IMG/VR virus record: IMGVR_UViG_3300031551_000003
Coordinates: 1 to 44,513 of that record
DNA length: 44,513 bases
Source: a virus
Reading direction: 5' to 3' (one strand)
Shown: positions 747 to 42,812 of the stretch, in pieces
Position numbering within the stretch: the stretch's first letter is position 1
How the letters are laid out: every line of letters starts with the position of its first letter
Position numbers and translations under genes: made by a program
Notes under the pieces: generated by a model
Databases searched by the model: none
What the model was told of the DNA's origin: nothing
Seen by the model: the letters and a program-made list of their open reading frames with translations, nothing else

Positions 747-952
747 TATTTCTCCTTTAAAGCTTGCCCAATAAAAAAAAATTTAAAATTTTCCTTTTCG
801 TTAGGACGAAGAAACATAAAAATATCTCCTTTATGTAACCAATCTATTTTCTTTATTATAGCTTCTCCTATAATTACTTCTTTATTTTTACCCCAAGGAT
901 GTTTCTTATCATCGGAAATCGTTTCTTCCATTACAATTTTATATCTCTTCAT
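746..952 (-). CDS. Small hypothetical protein (68 aa)
   Basis: This is a short Lys- and Phe-rich soluble protein with no motif I recognise. The segment WLHKGDIFMFLRPNE looks like a beta strand-turn-strand. The start at 952 has an AAGGAGG site six bases upstream and overlaps the stop of the nuclease gene (949) by four bases. It is therefore probably translated from the same message as the Cas4-like exonuclease. Confidence 0.65.
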   Translation of the reverse strand: MKRYKIVMEETISDDKKHPWGKNKEVIIGEAIIKKIDWLHKGDIFMFLRPNEKENFKFFFIGQALKEK

Positions 953-1848
953 TTTGCCTCCTTATAATAGAGTTCTTTTACCATATTTGCCAATTCAGTA
1001 TATTCATCCATAATTTCTATTCTTTTAGGTATTATATTCTTGACCTGTCCTATCTTTTGCGACTTTGTAATCCTTTTGAATTTCTCAGGCAAAGCTCCAG
1101 CTCCTTCGCAAGATACCCCATTGTATTCGCAATATCTGCATTGAAATGGATAATCCATATATAATGTCTCTTGTGTTTTCAACTCTTTAACAATAAGTTT
1201 AATAGGCATTAAAGAAGGTAACACATTCGTATCTCTAATACTACGCAAATATTCGTATGATTCTTCAACCCATTTGTCATTGCGTTCTACGTCAAACTCT
1301 CTCACTGCATTTTGCCCTTCTCTGTCCACATAAAAGAGTTTTCCCATATTTACGCCAAGAGCGTGCATATAGCCCTGTACTTGCGCTATATTGCCTTTCC
1401 TTGCGCCATCAGCGTCAAGCCAGTAGAAGGCTCCGCCTCTGACGGTTTTAATGTCTATCACACAAAGCTTTTCCCCAGTTAATAACATATCATACTGACC
1501 AGATATGTCGTCAGGTAAGTTCTGCAATAGTTGTTTTTCTTTTTGGAATGTTCCTTTTGCGATAGCCCATCCATTTCCCAGTCCTACTTCGATTCTTCTT
1601 TTCGCAAGTTCCTCTTGAACGTGTCCTGTTCTCCACATGATTATCTGCCCCATTGTAGGTTCTTGCTTTTCCTTGCCCATTAGGCGTAGTTTAAGTGCCC
1701 TTGGGCAGTCCTCTGCGGCGAACCTGAGGTCTGATACGTGCAAAATAGATTCATCCCAGTTGTCGGAGATGTCTATATCTATGAGGATATGCTTTTCTTT
1801 TTCGAGACCTATTTTATATGCTTGGATTAAATTTAATTCATTACTCAT
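949..1848 (-). CDS. Cas4/RecB-like PD-(D/E)xK exonuclease with Fe-S cysteines
   Basis: This is a 299-residue DNA exonuclease of the Cas4/AddB-like PD-(D/E)xK superfamily. Cys48 (CPRAL) lies near the N-terminus. The catalytic core is GQYD (Asp120), VIDIKT (Asp132, Lys134) and the QxxxY-type helix AQVQGYMHAL (156-165). The C-terminal CRYCEYNGVSC supplies Cys237, Cys240 and Cys247. With Cys48 these four cysteines match the 4Fe-4S ligand layout of Cas4. In phages such nucleases resect double-strand ends to make single strands for an annealing protein, here probably the Rad52-like protein at 38464-39492. The start at 1848 has a GGAGG site. No cas genes or CRISPR repeats are present, so a recombination role is preferred. 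Confidence 0.85.
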   Translation of the reverse strand: MSNELNLIQAYKIGLEKEKHILIDIDISDNWDESILHVSDLRFAAEDCPRALKLRLMGKEKQEPTMGQIIMWRTGHVQEELAKRRIEVGLGNGWAIAKGTFQKEKQLLQNLPDDISGQYDMLLTGEKLCVIDIKTVRGGAFYWLDADGARKGNIAQVQGYMHALGVNMGKLFYVDREGQNAVREFDVERNDKWVEESYEYLRSIRDTNVLPSLMPIKLIVKELKTQETLYMDYPFQCRYCEYNGVSCEGAGALPEKFKRITKSQKIGQVKNIIPKRIEIMDEYTELANMVKELYYKEAK

Positions 1849-5710: not shown

Positions 5711-5736
5711 GGCGGGTCAAGGGGGCTCAACCCGCC
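5711..5736 (-). terminator. GC-rich hairpin after the RNA cluster
   Basis: GGCGGGT (5711-5717) pairs with ACCCGCC (5730-5736) around a 12-base loop. On the minus strand it is followed by TTAAAATA. It lies between the tRNA-like cluster and the 58-residue gene, and it could end or process the RNA cluster. Confidence 0.5.
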
Positions 5737-5765
5737 CAATAAGGAGGTTTGTTACGTGGTATTAG

Positions 5766-5827
5766 TGCGGAGAGACGGATTTTTACCGCGTGGGAATACC
5801 CTTCTATGACTTTCGCCACTCTCCGCA
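5766..5827 (-). ncRNA. tRNA-like structured RNA element, 62 nt
   Basis: The ends TGCGGAGAG and CTCTCCGCA form a perfect nine-base-pair closing stem. Stacked directly on its 3' strand is a hairpin with a seven-base loop (GCGG-TAAAAAT-CCGT) in the place of a T-arm. A GGC-GAAA-GTC mini-arm sits in the place of a D-arm, and a GGG-TATT-CCC hairpin lies between them. No valid anticodon loop can be drawn, so this is not a normal tRNA. It starts two bases after the CCA end of the next element (5830-5989), as tandem tRNA genes do. I infer a processed, tRNA-derived RNA. Confidence 0.4.
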
Positions 5828-5829
5828 TT

Positions 5830-5989
5830 TGGCGACACGGACAAGGGACTCTCACCCTTGCATGACTTTAAAATTATAGACGTCTATAATCTTAGGACTT
5901 ATCCCTACCGTTTCCTATTATATTGCCCAGTTATAATAGGTTTTGTTTCAGTTCGTAACGTCGGAGCGTCTATATTCCGCCACCGTGCC
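5830..5989 (-). ncRNA. Expanded tRNA-Leu-like RNA element with encoded CCA, 160 nt
   Basis: The 5' end GGCACGG pairs with CCGTGTC (seven pairs, one G-U) and is followed by G then CCA, exactly as in a tRNA. TGGCGGAATATAGACGC right after the acceptor strand closely matches the D-arm of bacterial tRNA-Leu. The 3' end has a T-arm-like hairpin (CAAGGG-TGAGAGT-CCCTTG). Between these, where about 50 bases of a tRNA-Leu would lie, there are roughly 110 bases. They contain two strong hairpins: nine perfect pairs around a nine-base loop, and eleven pairs capped by ACGT. No standard anticodon arm is visible. It is too small for a known group I intron. I call it a tRNA-derived structured RNA. Confidence 0.45.
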
Positions 5990-6018
5990 ATATTTAATTA
6001 TAAAAGAGCGTTACTGTT

Positions 6019-6070
6019 TCCCTTGCGAGTAATGCGAAAGTGCCCTCTCGGCTTATACACCCGCAAGGGA
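6019..6070 (-). terminator. GC-rich hairpin, family member 2
   Basis: TCCCTTGCG and CGCAAGGGA form nine perfect pairs closing a 34-base interior that holds a small GCC-GAGAG-GGC hairpin. It lies between the stop of the 72-residue gene (6083) and the tRNA-like cluster. Its arm CCCTTGCGGGTG is identical over 12 bases to the hairpin at 6988-7027, so the two are related elements. It may be a terminator, a processing signal, or the first member of the RNA cluster. Confidence 0.5.
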
Positions 6071-6082
6071 GTTAAATAAGAT

Positions 6083-6942: not shown

Positions 6943-6956
6943 TTTGTCAAAGAACA
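6943..6956 (-). promoter_or_regulatory. boxA-like leader element, copy 2
   Basis: The minus strand reads TGTTCTTTGACAAA, close to bacterial boxA (NusB/NusE binding). It stands between the hairpin at 6988-7027 and the start codon at 6907. Confidence 0.5.
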
Positions 6957-6987
6957 TTACTAAAATACTTTTAAAAATAGTTTTAAA

Positions 6988-7027
6988 CCCCTGCGGGCGT
7001 GAAAACTACTAAAAGCACCCGCAAGGG
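6988..7027 (-). terminator. GC-rich hairpin, family member 3
   Basis: Twelve pairs (7027-7016 with 6988-6999, two of them G-U) close a 16-base loop. On the minus strand the hairpin is followed by TTTAAAACTATTTTT, so it could be an intrinsic terminator or attenuator. A boxA-like element lies just downstream. The arm CCCTTGCGGGTG recurs at 6019-6070. Confidence 0.6.
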
Positions 7028-7380: not shown

Positions 7381-7412
7381 GATACATATTAAAAGTACTA
7401 TCTGTATTCAAA

Positions 7413-7431
7413 CCCTCTCACAAGGAGAGGG
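7413..7431 (-). terminator. Seven-pair hairpin between early genes
   Basis: CCCTCTC and GAGAGGG form a perfect stem with a five-base loop, followed on the minus strand by TTTGAATAC. It lies between the first early gene and the zinc-ribbon gene. It may be an attenuator rather than a full terminator, because the U-tract is short. Confidence 0.5.
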
Positions 7432-7990: not shown

Positions 7991-8010
7991 AATGATATTG
8001 ATAGTCATCT

Positions 8011-8026
8011 TGTGATTCTATTCACA
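8011..8026. promoter_or_regulatory. CRP/FNR-like palindrome 1
   Basis: TGTGATTCTATTCACA fits TGTGA-N6-TCACA and is followed by AAGT. It is the first of four such sites in the control region. Confidence 0.65.
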
Positions 8027-8053
8027 AAGTTTGGAATGATTTTTGTATGTATT

Positions 8054-8069
8054 TGTGATTCAAATCACA
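8054..8069. promoter_or_regulatory. CRP/FNR-like palindrome 2
   Basis: TGTGATTCAAATCACA followed by AAGT lies 43 bp from palindrome 1 (about four helical turns), so both would face the same side of the DNA. Confidence 0.65.
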
Positions 8070-8087
8070 AAGTTTTTAGTCGTCAGA

Positions 8088-8197: not shown

Positions 8198-8237
8198 GTA
8201 AATAGAGTGTGTGTATCAACACACACACTCTATTTAC
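8198..8237. repeat. Perfect 17-bp inverted repeat
   Basis: GTAAATAGAGTGTGTGT (8198-8214) and ACACACACTCTATTTAC (8221-8237) are exact complements around a six-base loop. No long U-tract follows on either strand. It could end a transcript from the promoter at 7859, form a cruciform, or be an initiator-protein site. Confidence 0.75.
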
Positions 8238-8384
8238 GATTATATATCTACTACGAGTAAGAGGCTAGTACGCGTTAGTATATAATATATATTATATTAT
8301 TATAGCACATCGTGGTGACACGAATTGGATAAAAAGTAACACGCCCTTGTCGTAGGATACCAACATAAGCGTAGGAGGATAGTT

Positions 8385-8400
8385 TGTGATTGTAATCACA
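8385..8400. promoter_or_regulatory. CRP/FNR-like palindrome 3 (perfect)
   Basis: TGTGATTGTAATCACA is a palindrome over all 14 flanking bases and is followed by AAGT like the other copies. Confidence 0.65.
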
Positions 8401-8459
8401 AAGTCGCAAGGAAAACGGAAAGGGGCTATATACCCGCAAGAACGTGAAGACTGAAAGTA

Positions 8460-8475
8460 TGTGATTTCATTCACA
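8460..8475. promoter_or_regulatory. CRP/FNR-like palindrome 4
   Basis: TGTGATTTCATTCACA followed by AAGT lies 75 bp from palindrome 3, close to seven helical turns. Confidence 0.65.
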
Positions 8476-8682
8476 AAGTGCGAAGGGGGATGCTTACCGT
8501 CCCCTTTGTCTGGTGATTGCAAGGGTTTCCAGCGTTTTAGTGTATAAGGGCAAAAGTAAAAACCCCCATCGAGAGCCCTGCGAGCGGCGTAAACCCCCTA
8601 CAAAAACTAGAAACTCCCACGTTTTTCACTTTCCCTAACGCTTTCATTGCAACACTTTCAAGCAGTCAAAAATATTTACCCC

Positions 8683-38202: not shown

Positions 38203-38464
38203 CTTCGTAATCCCTCCTGTTTTTACGTTTACTCTTATCATAATAAGCCCCATTATCAATCCTGTCCCATCCTGTGCGCCCTGGTTCATGCTTGCTTTTA
38301 AACATTAACAATGGTGGATGCCCCATGAAGGTATGCTGTGCGTCATAGGTTGCCTTGTGCCCGCATTTAGGGCATATCTCCTCGTGGCGGTGCTTCATCG
38401 GCTTTAAGGCATCAAAGATATGACCACAAGTTGGATTAGTGCATTTAAAGGTGTATATAGGCAT
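38195..38464 (-). CDS. FmdB-type zinc-ribbon protein (89 aa)
   Basis: The N-terminal MPIYTFKCTNPTCGHIFD with a second CPKCG pair (residues 32-36) is the FmdB-family zinc ribbon (CxxxxC-x18-CxxC here). The rest is basic and short. Proteins of this family are small predicted regulators. The frame sits between the Rad52-like gene, whose stop overlaps its start, and the resolvase gene, whose start overlaps its stop. It may be a recombination-linked accessory factor. Confidence 0.75.
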   Translation of the reverse strand: MPIYTFKCTNPTCGHIFDALKPMKHRHEEICPKCGHKATYDAQHTFMGHPPLLMFKSKHEPGRTGWDRIDNGAYYDKSKRKNRRDYEGG

Positions 38465-39492
38465 TATATTCCCAGATGCTTTTTAAGCATCGCATCTACC
38501 GCCTTGCTGTCTTTTCCGCCATAAGTCTCTATAACCATTACTACTTCGCGCTGTAAATCGTAACCAGTTTTCTCATCTTTAGTGAAGTGTTGCAATATTT
38601 CGGCGGAGAGCTTAATGTCTTTGCGATGAGATTCTTTCAATATCCAATCTTCAGCAATTCGGCGATTGTATGCTAATGGTTTAAGGAAATCTATGGCATC
38701 GCTTATTCCATGTAGGATGAGATTACCTTTCTTGCTATCAGTTACTTTTTTGCGTTCTTCATCTGTAATCGTATGGGATTTGTAAAGACTCATAAAGAAA
38801 TTAAGTTGTTTCTCGGTATAAGCTATCTTATTTTTATCCATCCAAATTTTCATTTTATCGTATTCTTTATTATTTTCCTTTGCTTTATCTATTACTTTTT
38901 TTGTGTGTTCTTCTGTGATTTTCCCATCTTGTTCTTTTGATTTAGGTTGTGGCGATTTGTCCGTTTTATTTCTCCGTTCAGCATCCAATTTTTTGATAAA
39001 CTTTTTATCCCATAGCTCTATTCCTATGCCAATTCTTTTACATAATCGCATAAGTCCATTTGAACTACAAGCTTCTATTGCATCCCCATAAGTCATTTTC
39101 TTATTAGTTGGGATATATTCTTGTTGCCCTATAGCCCATGCTTGGGGCTTTCCATATATAAATAACCAGAAAGGTTGAAGAATAAGATTCCCTTCTCGAC
39201 TGGGTTTCCCAGCAGGTATCTGTGCCCATTCGTTACCAAATGCTTTACGCAATCTACCAACATAGAAAGTCCAAGGGAGATAATACAAACCATCTTCTCT
39301 TAATTCAATTTCTTCTTTCGGGACTGGGGCATAAAGTATCTCTTCTTGTTCAGGTGTAAGTTTTATAGTACCAGCTTTATTAAGAAGATTGGCAACTTGG
39401 CTTGAAATATTTTCTTCAAGTGTTTTCGGTGGGAAAGGCGATTCAATTTCTACTGGAACTTCTGTCTCTTTTTCCACTAAATCTTTAGGCAT
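38464..39492 (-). CDS. Rad52/Rad22-like single-strand annealing protein (342 aa)
   Basis: Residues 65-170 carry the Rad52-family core: YYLPWTFYVGRLRKAFGNEW, then a hydrophobic strand pair, MTYGDAIEACSSNGLMRLCK and RIGIGIELWDKK. The last two parts match the GDAxxxAxTxxLKRxxxxLGIGxxLW helix motif of phage Rad52-type recombinases. After it comes a basic, coiled, less conserved C-terminal part. The likely role is to anneal single strands made by the Cas4-like exonuclease during recombination-dependent replication or repair. The start at 39492 has GAGGAATA and overlaps the previous small gene. Confidence 0.8.
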   Translation of the reverse strand: MPKDLVEKETEVPVEIESPFPPKTLEENISSQVANLLNKAGTIKLTPEQEEILYAPVPKEEIELREDGLYYLPWTFYVGRLRKAFGNEWAQIPAGKPSREGNLILQPFWLFIYGKPQAWAIGQQEYIPTNKKMTYGDAIEACSSNGLMRLCKRIGIGIELWDKKFIKKLDAERRNKTDKSPQPKSKEQDGKITEEHTKKVIDKAKENNKEYDKMKIWMDKNKIAYTEKQLNFFMSLYKSHTITDEERKKVTDSKKGNLILHGISDAIDFLKPLAYNRRIAEDWILKESHRKDIKLSAEILQHFTKDEKTGYDLQREVVMVIETYGGKDSKAVDAMLKKHLGI

Positions 39493-39642: not shown

Positions 39643-40197
39643 TTATCCTCCTAAATCGTACCAGATTAATTCTTTATTCGTATTCCAAGCAGGATTCAAG
39701 TCTATTACTTTAATCAATCCCACATCAAGAGCATAAATCCATATTTTATCACTTTTTACCGATTCAATTTCAATGCTGTTTTTAAAACTTCCTGCTTCTA
39801 TAGAAATAGTAACATCAACTTGCGTGATTCGCAAGGTATCTGTTGGATAATGGGAATCAAGAATCCACTCCCATTTATTTCCTACTTCAATAGGTTCTTT
39901 TAAAGGTATATAGTAATTATTGCTTTCCTGCGGCGCATCATAGATATATTGCTTTAATATATCATTTTTATAATAGTAGTAAGTATAATTATTAGTCATA
40001 TATATAGTTTCATTATCATACGGATAACTACTTATCACTTCGATTGTATCCAAATTGCCATCTTCATATTTATAGACCCATGTATTCCCTATCGTTAAAG
40101 GGAAATATCGTTCTATGGTCATCTCCTGGGTATCGGGTGCGGTACTGGACTCACATGCTATTAACAAAACAATGAGTAAAAACGCCAACTTCTTCAT
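39643..40197 (-). CDS. Phage-encoded lipoprotein (184 aa)
   Basis: MKKLAFLLIVLLIAC ends in a lipobox (LIAC, Cys15), so it should be lipidated and anchored to a membrane. The mature part is beta-rich with FPLTIGNTWVYKYEDGN (residues 33-49) and GNKWEWI later, a pattern seen in FCB-group bacterial lipoproteins. It starts 26 bases after a tRNA-like RNA element, through a leader shared with the gene at 42593. Early expression and surface location suggest a role in superinfection exclusion or receptor masking. This is inference. It could also have been captured from the host. Confidence 0.75.
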   Translation of the reverse strand: MKKLAFLLIVLLIACESSTAPDTQEMTIERYFPLTIGNTWVYKYEDGNLDTIEVISSYPYDNETIYMTNNYTYYYYKNDILKQYIYDAPQESNNYYIPLKEPIEVGNKWEWILDSHYPTDTLRITQVDVTISIEAGSFKNSIEIESVKSDKIWIYALDVGLIKVIDLNPAWNTNKELIWYDLGG

Positions 40198-40223
40198 ATC
40201 CCCTCCTTTAAGGGTTTAAAGTT

Positions 40224-40369
40224 TGTGCGGGGCGAAGAATTGAACTTCGCTGTAGTAGCCACCCATCCCCTACCAGCCGATTAATATGTACACTTACTGA
40301 GACGGCTTCGCTCCTACGGGCATCGTATCTCAGATTACGCCCTGCATTCTCCTTTCTGCCTTCCCGCAC
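40224..40369 (-). ncRNA. tRNA-Ser-like pseudoknotted RNA element, 146 nt
   Basis: Ends GTGCGGG and CCCGCAC pair perfectly. The 3' strand is stacked on a six-pair hairpin with the loop TTCAATT, a true T-loop sequence. GGCAGAAAGGAGAATGC after the acceptor strand resembles a tRNA-Ser D-arm. Then GGGCG and TGCCC form a five-pair anticodon-like stem, but its loop is 15 bases and contains CTGAGA. This can pair with TCTCAG (40302-40297), which lies in the loop of a variable-arm hairpin (AGCCG 40307-40303 with CGGCT 40279-40275). No usable anticodon exists. The element is followed by the lipoprotein gene through a leader also found after 42622-42731. Confidence 0.5.
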
Positions 40370-40382
40370 CATTTTAAAACAT

Positions 40383-40763
40383 CTAATCATTTAGGTATCC
40401 GTTTTGTTTGCACCATAGGAGAAGCTCGGCTGCGGCTTCTTGGGGGTTATTTCCTTCATATTTTTTCAGCCATCTCGGTTCTGCACCTTTCACATAAATC
40501 ATAATTGCAGGAGGTAAAAATCTTTTATAATAAATTTCATCATCATATTCAATACAATTCGGCAACAATTCCCATAACTCATTGAAGGTATATGCACGAA
40601 ATCTGCCACAGCTTTTATGCTCTTGTGGGTATATATCTACTTTCCAATTTGGTTTTTCTTTACTCCCAAAATTATACCAGAAAAACCCATTCTCCTGTTC
40701 AAACCCCGCCTCTGCGAGTTTCCTCGATGTTTCCAGAGATGTGCAAATGTCCTGTAATGTCAT
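40383..40763 (-). CDS. Conserved phage hypothetical protein (126 aa)
   Basis: The pattern SLETSRKLAEAGFEQENGFF at the start, RAYTFNELWELLPNC in the middle, and EPRWLKKYEGNNPQEAAAEL ending in LLLWCKQNGYL is a small family that I recognise from many phage genomes. Its role is unknown to me. The last residues precede the tRNA-like element at 40224-40369. The start at 40763 follows GGATAAGCC and overlaps little with upstream sequence. Confidence 0.75.
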   Translation of the reverse strand: MTLQDICTSLETSRKLAEAGFEQENGFFWYNFGSKEKPNWKVDIYPQEHKSCGRFRAYTFNELWELLPNCIEYDDEIYYKRFLPPAIMIYVKGAEPRWLKKYEGNNPQEAAAELLLWCKQNGYLND

Positions 40764-40775
40764 GGCTTATCCTCC

Positions 40776-40883
40776 TTATCTATTGCGATTGATTTCTTCT
40801 TCTATGCCAAAGAAAAAATCAAAAACGCATTCCCAGCAAAACCAAAGAAATGTAATGAAAAGCATAAAATATTTTTTAATCAT
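40776..40883 (-). CDS. Tiny single-span membrane peptide (35 aa)
   Basis: ATG at 40883 overlaps the previous stop (40876), and the frame ends at TAA 40776. It is almost one transmembrane helix (MIKKYFMLFITFLWFCWECV) with a charged tail. Such tiny hydrophobic peptides are common in phages. A ribosome binding site is present (AAAGGAAGAAAAAG). A real but functionally unknown gene is likely. Confidence 0.5.
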   Translation of the reverse strand: MIKKYFMLFITFLWFCWECVFDFFFGIEEEINRNR

Positions 40884-41145
40884 TCTTTTTCTTCCTTTTG
40901 CAGAGATTTAAAAATGTTTCCCAGAGATAATCTATACATCCAATGCTAAATGCCACGAAAAACACAAAGATGTTTAGTATAGTTCTTCCTATATTTTTTA
41001 TTAATTTTGCGTCATTTTCAATTAGCATTTCTACAAGAATAATCACAACAGGAATAAGTATAACGATGCCAAAAAAAATGAGTATATGACAGTTGAAAAT
41101 TGAAGAAATATCATGGATATAATCCTTGATTGTATACTCCTCCAT
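40876..41145 (-). CDS. Membrane protein with two spans (89 aa)
   Basis: Two hydrophobic segments (CHILIFFGIVILIPVVIILV and NIGRTILNIFVFFVAFSIGC) flank a short Lys/Asp loop, with a basic C-terminus (KRKKKND). The ATG at 41145 overlaps the stop of the gene upstream (TGATG) and has GGAGGG. No family is recognised. Confidence 0.6.
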   Translation of the reverse strand: MEEYTIKDYIHDISSIFNCHILIFFGIVILIPVVIILVEMLIENDAKLIKNIGRTILNIFVFFVAFSIGCIDYLWETFLNLCKRKKKND

Positions 41146-41627
41146 CAGCCCTCCTTGAACTCTTTGATTTTGGTTAGAATTTTATCACGTAAAATTACTT
41201 CTCTATTTGAATCGAAATAATGAGTGTTAGGCAACTCCCTTAACCACGCCTCCAACTTCTCAATCGGAAAGTGCTTTTTTGTGTAGCCTTTACTCGAAAT
41301 TATATTCATCCAAGCCTTTATCCATTCTTGTATTATTTCATCTCTATCATAAAGCCCTTCTACACTATATCCACTCCTATCATTCAAATCTTTAAGTAAT
41401 GCAACCACCAACTCCTCCAATTCCTTCTCCCGTTCAGTCATAATTTCTTGTATTGGCCGTACTGTACTCAAACATAAACGTCTATCAAATTCTTCTTTAG
41501 TGATTAATTCTTTTCTAAAGGAATACTCGAAATTTTTTCTATCCCATCCATCAGGGTCCAATATTTCTAAATGGTCTTTTTCAATTACTTCCTTATGCCA
41601 TTCTTCTGATGTTTTTTTAAGTTCCAT
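41145..41627 (-). CDS. Conserved phage hypothetical protein (160 aa)
   Basis: The start is set at 41627 (MELKKTSEEWHKEV), where GAGGAGGAGAAGG precedes it. The opening EKDHLEILDPDGWDRKNFEY followed by FRKELITKEEFDRRLCLST is a short conserved pattern that I recognise from many phage proteins of unknown function. The remainder is helical and charged. It overlaps the upstream zinc-knuckle gene by 11 bases. Confidence 0.7.
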   Translation of the reverse strand: MELKKTSEEWHKEVIEKDHLEILDPDGWDRKNFEYSFRKELITKEEFDRRLCLSTVRPIQEIMTEREKELEELVVALLKDLNDRSGYSVEGLYDRDEIIQEWIKAWMNIISSKGYTKKHFPIEKLEAWLRELPNTHYFDSNREVILRDKILTKIKEFKEG

Positions 41628-41805
41628 CCTTCTCCTCCTCAATCACCCGGATTGGTTTTTTGCAAGCGGGACAAATCCCTGTTGGTTTCACATTTCCCTT
41701 ATCTGCCACATAGCCACAAGTACCAATATAACAATGTTTCAATATTCCGTTTTCGACTTTATATGCAGCATCACTTCGCCACTCACACACGTTATCCTTG
41801 CTCAT
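41617..41805 (-). CDS. Small zinc-ribbon protein (62 aa)
   Basis: Two pairs of cysteines (HCYIGTCGYVADK, CPACKK) give the pattern C-x4-C...CxxC of a zinc ribbon, preceded by a Trp-containing helix. It overlaps the genes on both sides (41792-41941 and 41145-41627). The function is unknown. It could be a nucleic-acid or protein adaptor. Confidence 0.6.
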   Translation of the reverse strand: MSKDNVCEWRSDAAYKVENGILKHCYIGTCGYVADKGNVKPTGICPACKKPIRVIEEEKDGT

Positions 41806-41941
41806 TTTTGTTCCTTATCAGCGTATTCAGCCTTTTCGCCAACTTCCAGACAATCTTGGCTTCCTCGCCTTCGAGCACTATCTGTTCTTCCTGCCAGGCT
41901 GATTCGCTTTTTGTGATTGTTATTGTTTTAGCTTTGCTCAT
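41792..41941 (-). CDS. Very small hypothetical protein (49 aa)
   Basis: ATG at 41941 and TAA at 41792 define a 49-residue frame (MSKAKTITITKSESAWQEE) that overlaps genes on both sides by 14 bases. AAAGGAGAACAAAA precedes it. It has a short strand then one helix. It is probably a real, tightly packed early gene. Confidence 0.55.
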   Translation of the reverse strand: MSKAKTITITKSESAWQEEQIVLEGEEAKIVWKLAKRLNTLIRNKNEQG

Positions 41942-42176
41942 TTTTGTTCTCCTTTTTTTCTATTTGGTTTAAGAAATCTAATACATCTAATAAGCAAGAT
42001 TTGTTAAAAACACATTTTTCTCTTGAACTAAAAACATATTGCTTCCAAGGTTTATACCATGACAAAATCCCTAATTGGTCTCCTTTTTTATTGTTGTAAA
42101 TACGATAAACTGGATACCCTTCAAAAATTTCTTGATTAGTTTGTTTGATTGTTATATATTTATATTTCTTTACCAC
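41928..42176 (-). CDS. Conserved phage hypothetical protein (82 aa)
   Basis: The motif GYPVYRIYNNKKGDQLGILS then WYKPWKQYVF is a pattern that I recognise from small early proteins in several unrelated phage genomes. The C-terminus is helical and polar. The start at 42176 follows AGGAGGAGATGTGG, and a 12-pair hairpin lies between it and the previous gene. The function is unknown. Confidence 0.65.
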   Translation of the reverse strand: MVKKYKYITIKQTNQEIFEGYPVYRIYNNKKGDQLGILSWYKPWKQYVFSSREKCVFNKSCLLDVLDFLNQIEKKENKNEQS

Positions 42177-42191
42177 ATCTCCTCCTATTAT

Positions 42192-42228
42192 CGGGAGCCA
42201 GCGGTGAAGACTTGGGCGCTGACCCCCG
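42192..42228 (-). terminator. Twelve-pair hairpin between early genes
   Basis: 42192-42203 pairs with 42217-42228 over twelve bases (two G-U on the minus strand) around a 13-base loop. On the minus strand it is followed by ATAATAGGAGG, the ribosome binding region of the next gene. It is probably an attenuator or an RNA-processing hairpin, since no U-tract follows. Confidence 0.65.
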
Positions 42229-42233
42229 AAGGG

Positions 42234-42593
42234 TTAATCTAATAATTTTTTTAATGCTTCTTTTCCAGACCAAGAACTTAAATTTTCGGTTACTTTTTTA
42301 AGCATATGTTCTGCTATTGTAGCACCTATTTTTACATAACCTGAGACAAAAGATTTTATAATTTCTTTTTTCTTTTTCTTTAGTTCTTTTATTATATCTT
42401 CAGTAAGTTCTTCTTCTATAAATTTGGCGACAGTTTTCCCTATTTGTTCTCTATACGAATACCCTAAATCATCTAATAATCTTTCTTGTAATACGCTGGC
42501 CATTTTCTCTTTGAACTGTTCTCGATTTTCCTCCATTGTTTTTAACACTAATTTTTCTATTGCTAAATTCTCCACTATATTTTTTTCTTCCAT
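42234..42593 (-). CDS. Helical, Lys/Glu-rich protein (119 aa)
   Basis: Almost the whole sequence is amphipathic helix (EKLVLKTMEENREQFKEKMA; EELTEDIIKELKKKKKEII), so it probably forms coiled coils or an oligomer. The start at 42593 lies 28 bases after the tRNA-like element at 42622-42731, through the leader AAACCCTTGAAGGAGGGGAT, which matches the leader of the lipoprotein gene. The function is unknown. Its placement suggests co-regulation with the RNA elements. Confidence 0.65.
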   Translation of the reverse strand: MEEKNIVENLAIEKLVLKTMEENREQFKEKMASVLQERLLDDLGYSYREQIGKTVAKFIEEELTEDIIKELKKKKKEIIKSFVSGYVKIGATIAEHMLKKVTENLSSWSGKEALKKLLD

Positions 42594-42621
42594 ATCCCCT
42601 CCTTCAAGGGTTTAAGGTTTG

Positions 42622-42731
42622 TGGTGCGGAGTAAAGGACTTGCACCTTTACATTCCCCCACACTATGAGTCAAGGTCTCACGTGGGTTCCGTCGCCTTGT
42701 TACCCCTGCTCGTATTCCAGCCATCCGCACC
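42622..42731 (-). ncRNA. tRNA-like pseudoknotted RNA element, 110 nt
   Basis: GGTGCGGA and TCCGCACC give an eight-pair acceptor-like stem stacked without a gap on a seven-pair hairpin with the loop TGCAAGT, in the place of a T-arm. GCT-GGAATACG-AGC after it resembles a D-arm. GGGT/ACCC then closes a 14-base anticodon-like loop containing CAAGG (42699-42695), which can pair with CCTTG (42675-42671) in the loop of a variable-arm hairpin (GTGAG/CTCAT). This is the same plan as the element at 40224-40369. No anticodon with U33 can be placed. It precedes the 119-residue gene through a shared leader. Confidence 0.5.
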
Positions 42732-42755: not shown

Positions 42756-42812
42756 GGGGGCGTACTCGAATCGAACGAGTAAAAAGGTGCGACCTTTTCG
42801 CCTTCACGCCCC
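42756..42812 (-). ncRNA. 57-nt D-arm-less tRNA-like element
   Basis: GGGGCGT and ACGCCCC form seven perfect acceptor pairs. ACTCG-TTCGATT-CGAGT is a canonical five-pair T-arm with a perfect T-loop. Between them are only 25 bases: six linker bases and one hairpin, read either as AAAAG-GTCGCAC-CTTTT (seven-base loop with U33, anticodon CGC, A37) or with six pairs and a TCGCA loop. There is no D-arm. No CCA is encoded, and TTTTT follows. D-armless tRNAs are known mainly from animal mitochondria, so this is either a degenerate tRNA or a tRNA mimic. Confidence 0.5.

What the first reader, a model, noticed from the sequence alone, without database searches (positions are those of the whole stretch)
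40224..42731. A family of tRNA-like RNAs with an anticodon-loop to variable-arm pseudoknot
The elements at 40224-40369 and 42622-42731 share one architecture. A 7-8 pair acceptor-like stem stacks without a gap on a T-arm-like hairpin (13 and 15 pairs in total, against 12 in most tRNAs). A tRNA-like D-arm follows. A 4-5 pair anticodon-like stem then carries an enlarged 14-15 base loop, and part of that loop (CTGAGA or CAAGG) is complementary to the loop of a variable-arm hairpin (TCTCAG or CCTTG). The pairings use different sequences, as expected if structure is conserved. Both lie just before a gene, with the same downstream leader. No anticodon is usable, so these may be tRNA mimics acting as regulators, decoys or processing scaffolds. 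The folding was done by eye.
Basis: partly seen in the sequence, partly recalled or inferred. Interest (0 to 1): 0.82.

Follow-up and report, generated by a model that had tools for sequence, protein, structure and literature searches.

The report
Phage tRNA-like RNAs with replaced anticodons
This unclassified phage carries not two but five short RNA elements that keep the top half of a tRNA but have lost a normal anticodon half; the layout proposed for two of them turns out to be that of T4 phage's RNAC, whose role is still unknown.

Summary
The window is a complete 44.4-kb phage genome (127-nt terminal repeat) with no close relative found. Both elements are real on the minus strand: E1 (40225-40369) and E2 (42622-42731) have perfect acceptor/T-arm coaxial stems (13 and 15 pairs), tRNA-type T-loops, plausible D-arms and the same 33-nt leader (31/33) ahead of different genes. 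Three further tRNA-like elements were missed: E3 (42757-42812), E4 (5830-5989, tRNA-Leu-like start, encoded CCA) and E5 (5766-5827). All five lie between early genes; ARAGORN and Rfam find none. The pseudoknot is plausible but unproven: loop-loop P 0.05 (E1) and 0.01 (E2), with competing folds; E3-E5 lack it. No orthologues were found, so covariation could not be tested here. It could in the closest known RNA: 16 T4 RNAC homologues show the same layout (acceptor stacked on T-arm, central hairpin loop TTGACG, variable-arm loop CGTCAA), with covarying stems and an A-U to G-C double change in the loop-loop pair in Marfavirus. E1/E2 do not match the RNAC model, so kinship is unproven. Best reading: tRNA-like RNAs cut from early transcripts by host tRNA-processing enzymes, giving stable small RNAs and defined mRNA starts; transcription, processing and function are inferred.

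The parts
40225..40369 (-). E1, large tRNA-like element: acceptor (40363-40369/40225-40231), D-arm (40344-40359), anticodon-like hairpin (40318-40342), variable-arm region, T-arm (40232-40250)
   Evidence: fold z -2.78
40195..40227 (-). leader with Shine-Dalgarno shared with E2, start of lipoprotein-like gene 39643-40197
   Evidence: repeat D13, 94% over 33 nt
42622..42731 (-). E2, tRNA-like element: acceptor (42724-42731/42623-42630), D-arm (42708-42721), anticodon-like loop with CAAGG, variable-arm hairpin loop ACCTTGA (42670-42676), T-arm (42631-42651)
   Evidence: fold z -2.53
42591..42623 (-). leader shared with E1, start of gene 42234-42593
   Evidence: repeat D13
42757..42812 (-). E3, mini tRNA-like element: 7-bp acceptor on 5-bp T-arm with canonical TTCGATT loop, possible D-arm GCG-AAAAGGT-CGC, no anticodon arm; followed by CTTTTT (may double as a terminator)
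   Evidence: (z -2.52)
5830..5989 (-). E4, large tRNA-like element with tRNA-Leu-like 5' part (TGGCGGAAT..AGACGC), two long inner hairpins, T-loop TGAGAGT, encoded G-CCA end
   Evidence: (z -2.09)
5766..5827 (-). E5, mini cloverleaf: 9-bp acceptor, D-arm with GAAA loop, 3-bp anticodon-like arm with TATT loop, T-arm with TAAAAAT loop
   Evidence: (z -4.38, no shuffle as stable)

Best explanation
E1-E5 are phage tRNA-like RNAs that keep the tRNA top half (acceptor stacked on T-arm, usually a D-arm) while the anticodon half is shrunk (E3, E5), enlarged (E4) or pseudoknotted (E2, possibly E1). They sit in the spacers of early polycistronic transcripts. Host tRNA-maturation enzymes (RNase P at the 5' side, RNase Z or exonucleases at the 3' side) recognise the acceptor-T helix and cut there. 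This releases stable RNAs of roughly 60-160 nt and, for E1 and E2, leaves the downstream mRNA with one fixed leader (ACAAAC..TTAAACCC..AGGAGGGG). The released RNAs would be analogues of T4 RNAC. Shown: structure, number, placement, the shared leader and the RNAC parallel. Inferred: transcription, cleavage, stability and any trans role.
For: Five coaxial acceptor/T elements, all minus strand and in three intergenic gaps, beyond shuffles. All five T-loops keep T54, R57, A58 and T60; hits with that T-loop motif (T54, R57, A58) that are neither tRNA nor RNAC occur 4 times in about 0.8 Mb of other virus DNA, i.e. about 0.2 expected per window against 5. E1 and E2 differ by double changes that keep pairing (last acceptor pair G-C/A-U, D-stem A-U/U-A, anticodon-like stem C-G/U-A, four T-stem pairs) while the leader stays 31/33 identical. 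E4 encodes G-CCA. T4 RNAC, a small RNA confirmed by Northern blot (PMC9697503), has the same layout with covariation, and its annotated ends lie within 1-2 nt of the acceptor stem.
Against: No transcript data. No orthologues, so no covariation for E1-E5 beyond the E1/E2 comparison. E1-E3 and E5 lack an encoded CCA. No promoter beyond chance near the elements. The RNAC model does not match the window. E2's minimum-energy fold replaces the T-arm.
Confidence: 0.5

Rival explanations
1. Cis-acting only: the elements are 5'-UTR or intercistronic processing or stability structures (as T7 uses RNase III hairpins) and the excised piece has no function of its own.
For: E1 and E2 lie about 25 nt upstream of a start codon with an identical leader and Shine-Dalgarno and no terminator between; other spacers of the same early region hold plain hairpins.
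Against: E3 is followed by a T-run rather than a start codon, E4 and E5 are stacked in tandem, and the elaborate central parts and the E4 CCA are more than a cleavage site needs.
Confidence: 0.25
2. Trans-acting decoys or sponges: RNAs that imitate tRNA to occupy host proteins that bind or cut tRNA (anticodon nucleases, modification or maturation enzymes).
For: Five different anticodon halves on one kind of top half; T-loops of tRNA type; early-strand position.
Against: No target known, host unknown, no direct evidence of expression.
Confidence: 0.12
3. Decaying tRNA genes picked up by the phage.
For: E4 begins like a bacterial tRNA-Leu (own knowledge of that signature) and E3 has a textbook T-loop.
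Against: No mismatch in any of the five acceptor/T helices (12-15 pairs each) although the other halves are unrecognisable; E1/E2 changes are compensated; neutral decay would break stems.
Confidence: 0.08
4. Y RNA-like tethers for a Ro/Rsr protein.
For: Bacterial Y RNAs contain tRNA-like parts and occur in some phages (discussed in PMC12282133).
Against: No TROVE (PF05731) protein in this genome, no Rfam match. A host-encoded Ro cannot be excluded.
Confidence: 0.03
5. Intron-containing or otherwise functional tRNAs.
For: Cloverleaf-like outline.
Against: ARAGORN finds none, also with introns allowed; relaxed-score calls are noise-level (16 in the genome). No position after the inserts restores an anticodon stem in E1.
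Confidence: 0.02

Closest known systems
T4 RNAC (rnaC, species 1 RNA) of Straboviridae
   Same: Discrete non-coding RNA of 139 nt (E1 145, E2 110); acceptor stem stacked on a tRNA-type T-arm; central anticodon-like hairpin whose loop is complementary to the loop of a variable-arm hairpin; no usable anticodon; not in Rfam.
   Different: No sequence or covariance-model match to the window; RNAC lacks a clear D-arm and has two U-U mismatches in the acceptor; it lies among tRNA genes in several genera and is a late RNA (PMC9697503), whereas E1-E5 lie singly or in pairs between early protein genes.
tmRNA
   Same: tRNA-like top half with pseudoknots replacing the anticodon arm.
   Different: Far shorter; no tag reading frame; ARAGORN finds no tmRNA.
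Bacterial Y RNAs (YrlA type)
   Same: Non-coding RNAs with a tRNA-like module, known in some phages.
   Different: No Ro/TROVE protein here and no Rfam match.
Plant-virus tRNA-like structures (TYMV type)
   Same: tRNA mimicry helped by pseudoknots.
   Different: Those are 3' ends of RNA genomes with the pseudoknot in the acceptor; E1-E5 are internal, before genes, with an ordinary acceptor helix.

Membership tests
T4 RNAC family | matches a covariance model built from 16 RNAC homologues | tested here: not met
   R1 finds RNAC at 145-151 bits in T4-like phages, nothing in the window
T4 RNAC-like architecture | acceptor helix stacked on a T-arm with tRNA-type loop | tested here: met
   E1-E5; RNAC covariation
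T4 RNAC-like architecture | central hairpin loop pairs with variable-arm loop | tested here: inconclusive
   E1 P 0.05, E2 P 0.01, competing folds; RNAC itself 6/6 complementary with one double change
functional tRNA | cloverleaf with 7-nt anticodon loop, recognised by ARAGORN or Rfam RF00005 | tested here: not met
tmRNA | tRNA-like domain plus tag reading frame | tested here: not met
Y RNA/Ro system | Ro/Rsr (TROVE) partner protein | tested here: not met
   none in this genome; host not testable
RNase P substrate | cleaved at the 5' end of the acceptor stem | not testable with these tools
   needs an in-vitro assay; E4 has RCCA, the others do not

The most novel reading that the evidence does not exclude
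Unrelated phages have arrived at, or share, one class of small RNA: a tRNA top half whose anticodon-like loop is locked by pairing to the variable-arm loop. T4 RNAC and E2 (perhaps E1) are members, and the lock has a common role, such as shielding the mimic from anticodon-directed nucleases or holding a protein-binding shape.
Probability: 0.3. Interest if true: 0.85.

Novelty: new variant of a known kind. Interest (0 to 1): 0.62.

Why it matters
T4 RNAC was annotated as a small stable RNA long ago and its role is still given as unknown (PMC3014915, PMC9697503). A covariation-supported model of it (tRNA top half plus a loop-loop lock) and an unrelated phage with similar RNAs make concrete tests possible in a standard laboratory system (T4 on E. 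coli), and suggest that tRNA-finding programs overlook a class of phage RNA that imitates only half a tRNA.

Tried and rejected
Searches for orthologues of the phage or its elements: DNA against phages, the leader pattern (four hits, read as chance, with no tRNA-like element upstream), terminase, portal and Mgm101-like protein in viral and genome collections, capsid, portal and Mgm101 by tblastn: nothing close; only terminases of about 20-28% identity (one 43-residue stretch at 47%). A descriptor scan of those relatives gave no further convincing element. Weak RNAC-model hits in Aeromonas phage 44RR and Acinetobacter phage 133 lie on what read as ordinary tRNAs and were dropped. Intron-tRNA, tmRNA and Y RNA readings rejected. 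Promoters at the elements: no more than in shuffles. The 87-aa open frame across E2/E3 has no evident Shine-Dalgarno and is taken as accidental.

Full report
The window is a whole phage genome: its first and last 127 bases are identical and the session's genome G000 is the same 44,513-base virus record. Its right end (about 37-44.2 kb) and left end (to about 7.3 kb) carry small minus-strand genes. The middle carries plus-strand genes, among them a terminase recognised by PHROGs and other large open frames with no PHROG match. The closest terminases found are mostly at 20-28% identity. Searches with the terminase, portal, capsid and an Mgm101-like protein found no close relative. That the minus-strand genes are early genes is inferred from their small size and from the layout, not shown.

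The two elements of the finding are real. Read on the minus strand, E1 (40225-40369) and E2 (42622-42731) each lie in an intergenic gap. The acceptor and T-arm stack without a gap: 7+6 pairs with T-loop TTCAATT in E1, 8+7 pairs with TGCAAGT in E2. Both are followed by the same leader (31 of 33 identical), ending in AGGAGGGGATATG at two unrelated genes. They share ATGGTGCGG at the start and GCAGGG after the D-arm, so they are probably duplicates that diverged. The differences between them are compensated: last acceptor pair G-C to A-U, D-stem A-U to U-A, anticodon-like stem C-G to U-A, and four T-stem pairs (read directly).

There are three more. E3 (42757-42812), just upstream of E2, has a 7-bp acceptor on a 5-bp T-arm with the textbook loop TTCGATT and no anticodon arm. 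In the left early region E4 (5830-5989) starts like a tRNA-Leu and ends in G-CCA, and E5 (5766-5827) folds into a small cloverleaf. A mechanical scan of both strands for a coaxial acceptor plus 7-nt-loop hairpin ranks these five among its top six hits; the sixth hit (38480, plus strand) lies across the coding region of the Mgm101-like gene. Dinucleotide shuffles of the genome give 0.98 such hits on average, at most 4. All five loops have T54, R57, A58 and T60. In about 0.8 Mb of other virus DNA only four hits with the T54/R57/A58 loop, apart from tRNAs and RNAC, were seen. The score threshold was chosen after E1-E5 were in view, so these numbers are supportive rather than formal. ARAGORN and Rfam report none of them.

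The pseudoknot is less secure. In E1 six loop bases are complementary (P 0.05 with shuffled loops). Freeing them costs 8.6 kcal/mol in the best nested fold against 11.0 from the new helix, roughly break-even. In E2 five bases are complementary (P 0.011 by loops, 0.013 by shuffled core) and the cost is only 1.5 against 8.4. But E2's anticodon-like stem is predicted at 0.30, and CAAGG/CCTTG also pairs in a nested minimum-energy fold. E4's best loop-loop match is not significant (P 0.28), and E3 and E5 have no room for one. So the pairing in E2 is likely, its topology open, and E1 uncertain.

T4 RNAC was chosen as comparator because it is a small stable RNA from a phage tRNA cluster with unknown role (PMC3014915; PMC9697503). 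blastn places it in 714 phage records, and a query with the Edwardsiella phage version reaches further genera. In an alignment of 16 homologues a 31-pair structure is 97.2% paired, with 14 pairs changed on both sides; no shuffle reaches this, and slid versions pair at 33-44%. It consists of an acceptor CGRTTCG/CGTTYCG with two central U-U mismatches, a 5-bp T-arm directly stacked on it, a 10-bp variable arm with loop CGTCAA, and a central 5-bp hairpin with loop TTGACG. All five pairs of that central stem change on both sides while the loop stays. The six loop-loop pairs are complete in every sequence, and in the four Marfavirus sequences TTGACG/CGTCAA becomes TTGGCG/CGCCAA, an A-U to G-C double change. 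That is one evolutionary event, so it supports the pairing without closing the case; the complete 6-of-6 complementarity of two 6-nt loops adds to it. In the folding program the loop-loop pairing costs little in T4, PEi20, Kosakonia and Marfavirus RNAC (0.2-2.7 kcal/mol to free the segments against 10.0-12.1 of stacking), although a shuffled-core test with a cruder hairpin descriptor gave only P 0.03 for T4 and missed the Marfavirus hairpins, whose stems are shorter than it demands. The annotated RNAC ends lie within 1-2 nt of the acceptor stem, as for a processed tRNA.

Membership and likeness must be kept apart. A covariance model of RNAC does not find E1-E5, and RNAC has no clear D-arm, so E1-E5 are not shown to be RNAC relatives. 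What they share is the plan: a tRNA top half, which host maturation enzymes recognise (established knowledge of RNase P and RNase Z), with the decoding half replaced.

Mechanism. The most economical account is that the elements are excised from early transcripts by host tRNA-processing enzymes, giving stable RNAs and, at E1 and E2, identical mRNA 5' leaders. The placement, the shared leader, the intact acceptor/T helices and the encoded CCA of E4 fit this; transcription and cleavage have not been observed. Whether the released RNA does anything is open: purely cis processing, or a decoy role, are the main rivals. Decayed tRNAs are unlikely because no acceptor or T pair is broken in any of the five. 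A Ro/Y RNA system is unlikely because no TROVE protein is present.

Novelty. The literature searches available (PubMed Central open-licence papers only) found no description of such elements or of a loop-loop pairing in RNAC; the original T4 papers of the 1970s-80s are not in that library, so an earlier structural proposal for RNAC cannot be excluded. PMC12685909 reports a convergent mutation in the neighbouring rnaD region during host adaptation of a T4-like phage, which shows current interest in this locus.

Noticed in passing
8010-8032, 8053-8075, 8384-8406, 8459-8481: Four copies of a palindrome of the form TGTGA-N6-TCACA (CRP/FNR-like site) in the non-coding control region 7.7-8.7 kb (D3).
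   Followed up: no
8198-8237: A 17-bp perfect hairpin GTAAATAGAGTGTGTGTATCAACACACACACTCTATTTAC.
   Followed up: no
6010-6072, 6950-6990, 7410-7430, 42190-42225, 5713-5740: Strong simple hairpins in other spacers of the minus-strand genes; possible processing or stability sites.
   Followed up: partly
window 949-1848 and 38464-39492: PD-(D/E)XK/Cas4-like exonuclease and Mgm101-like (annealing-type) protein: a likely phage recombination pair.
   Followed up: no
L091:78-215, L094:77-214: Some Klebsiella Marfavirus records annotate a 45-aa hypothetical protein on top of the RNAC homologue, probably a mis-annotation.
   Followed up: partly
L075 and L086, T-arm of the RNAC homologue: T-loop changed to TGCATTC or TGCATGC in two RNAC homologues, resembling the TGCAAGT loop of E2.
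   Followed up: no
L069:905-911 and window 40219-40231, 42612-42630: RNAC and E1/E2 are all followed by ACAAAC and then a T-rich stretch just after the acceptor stem; possibly coincidence.
   Followed up: no
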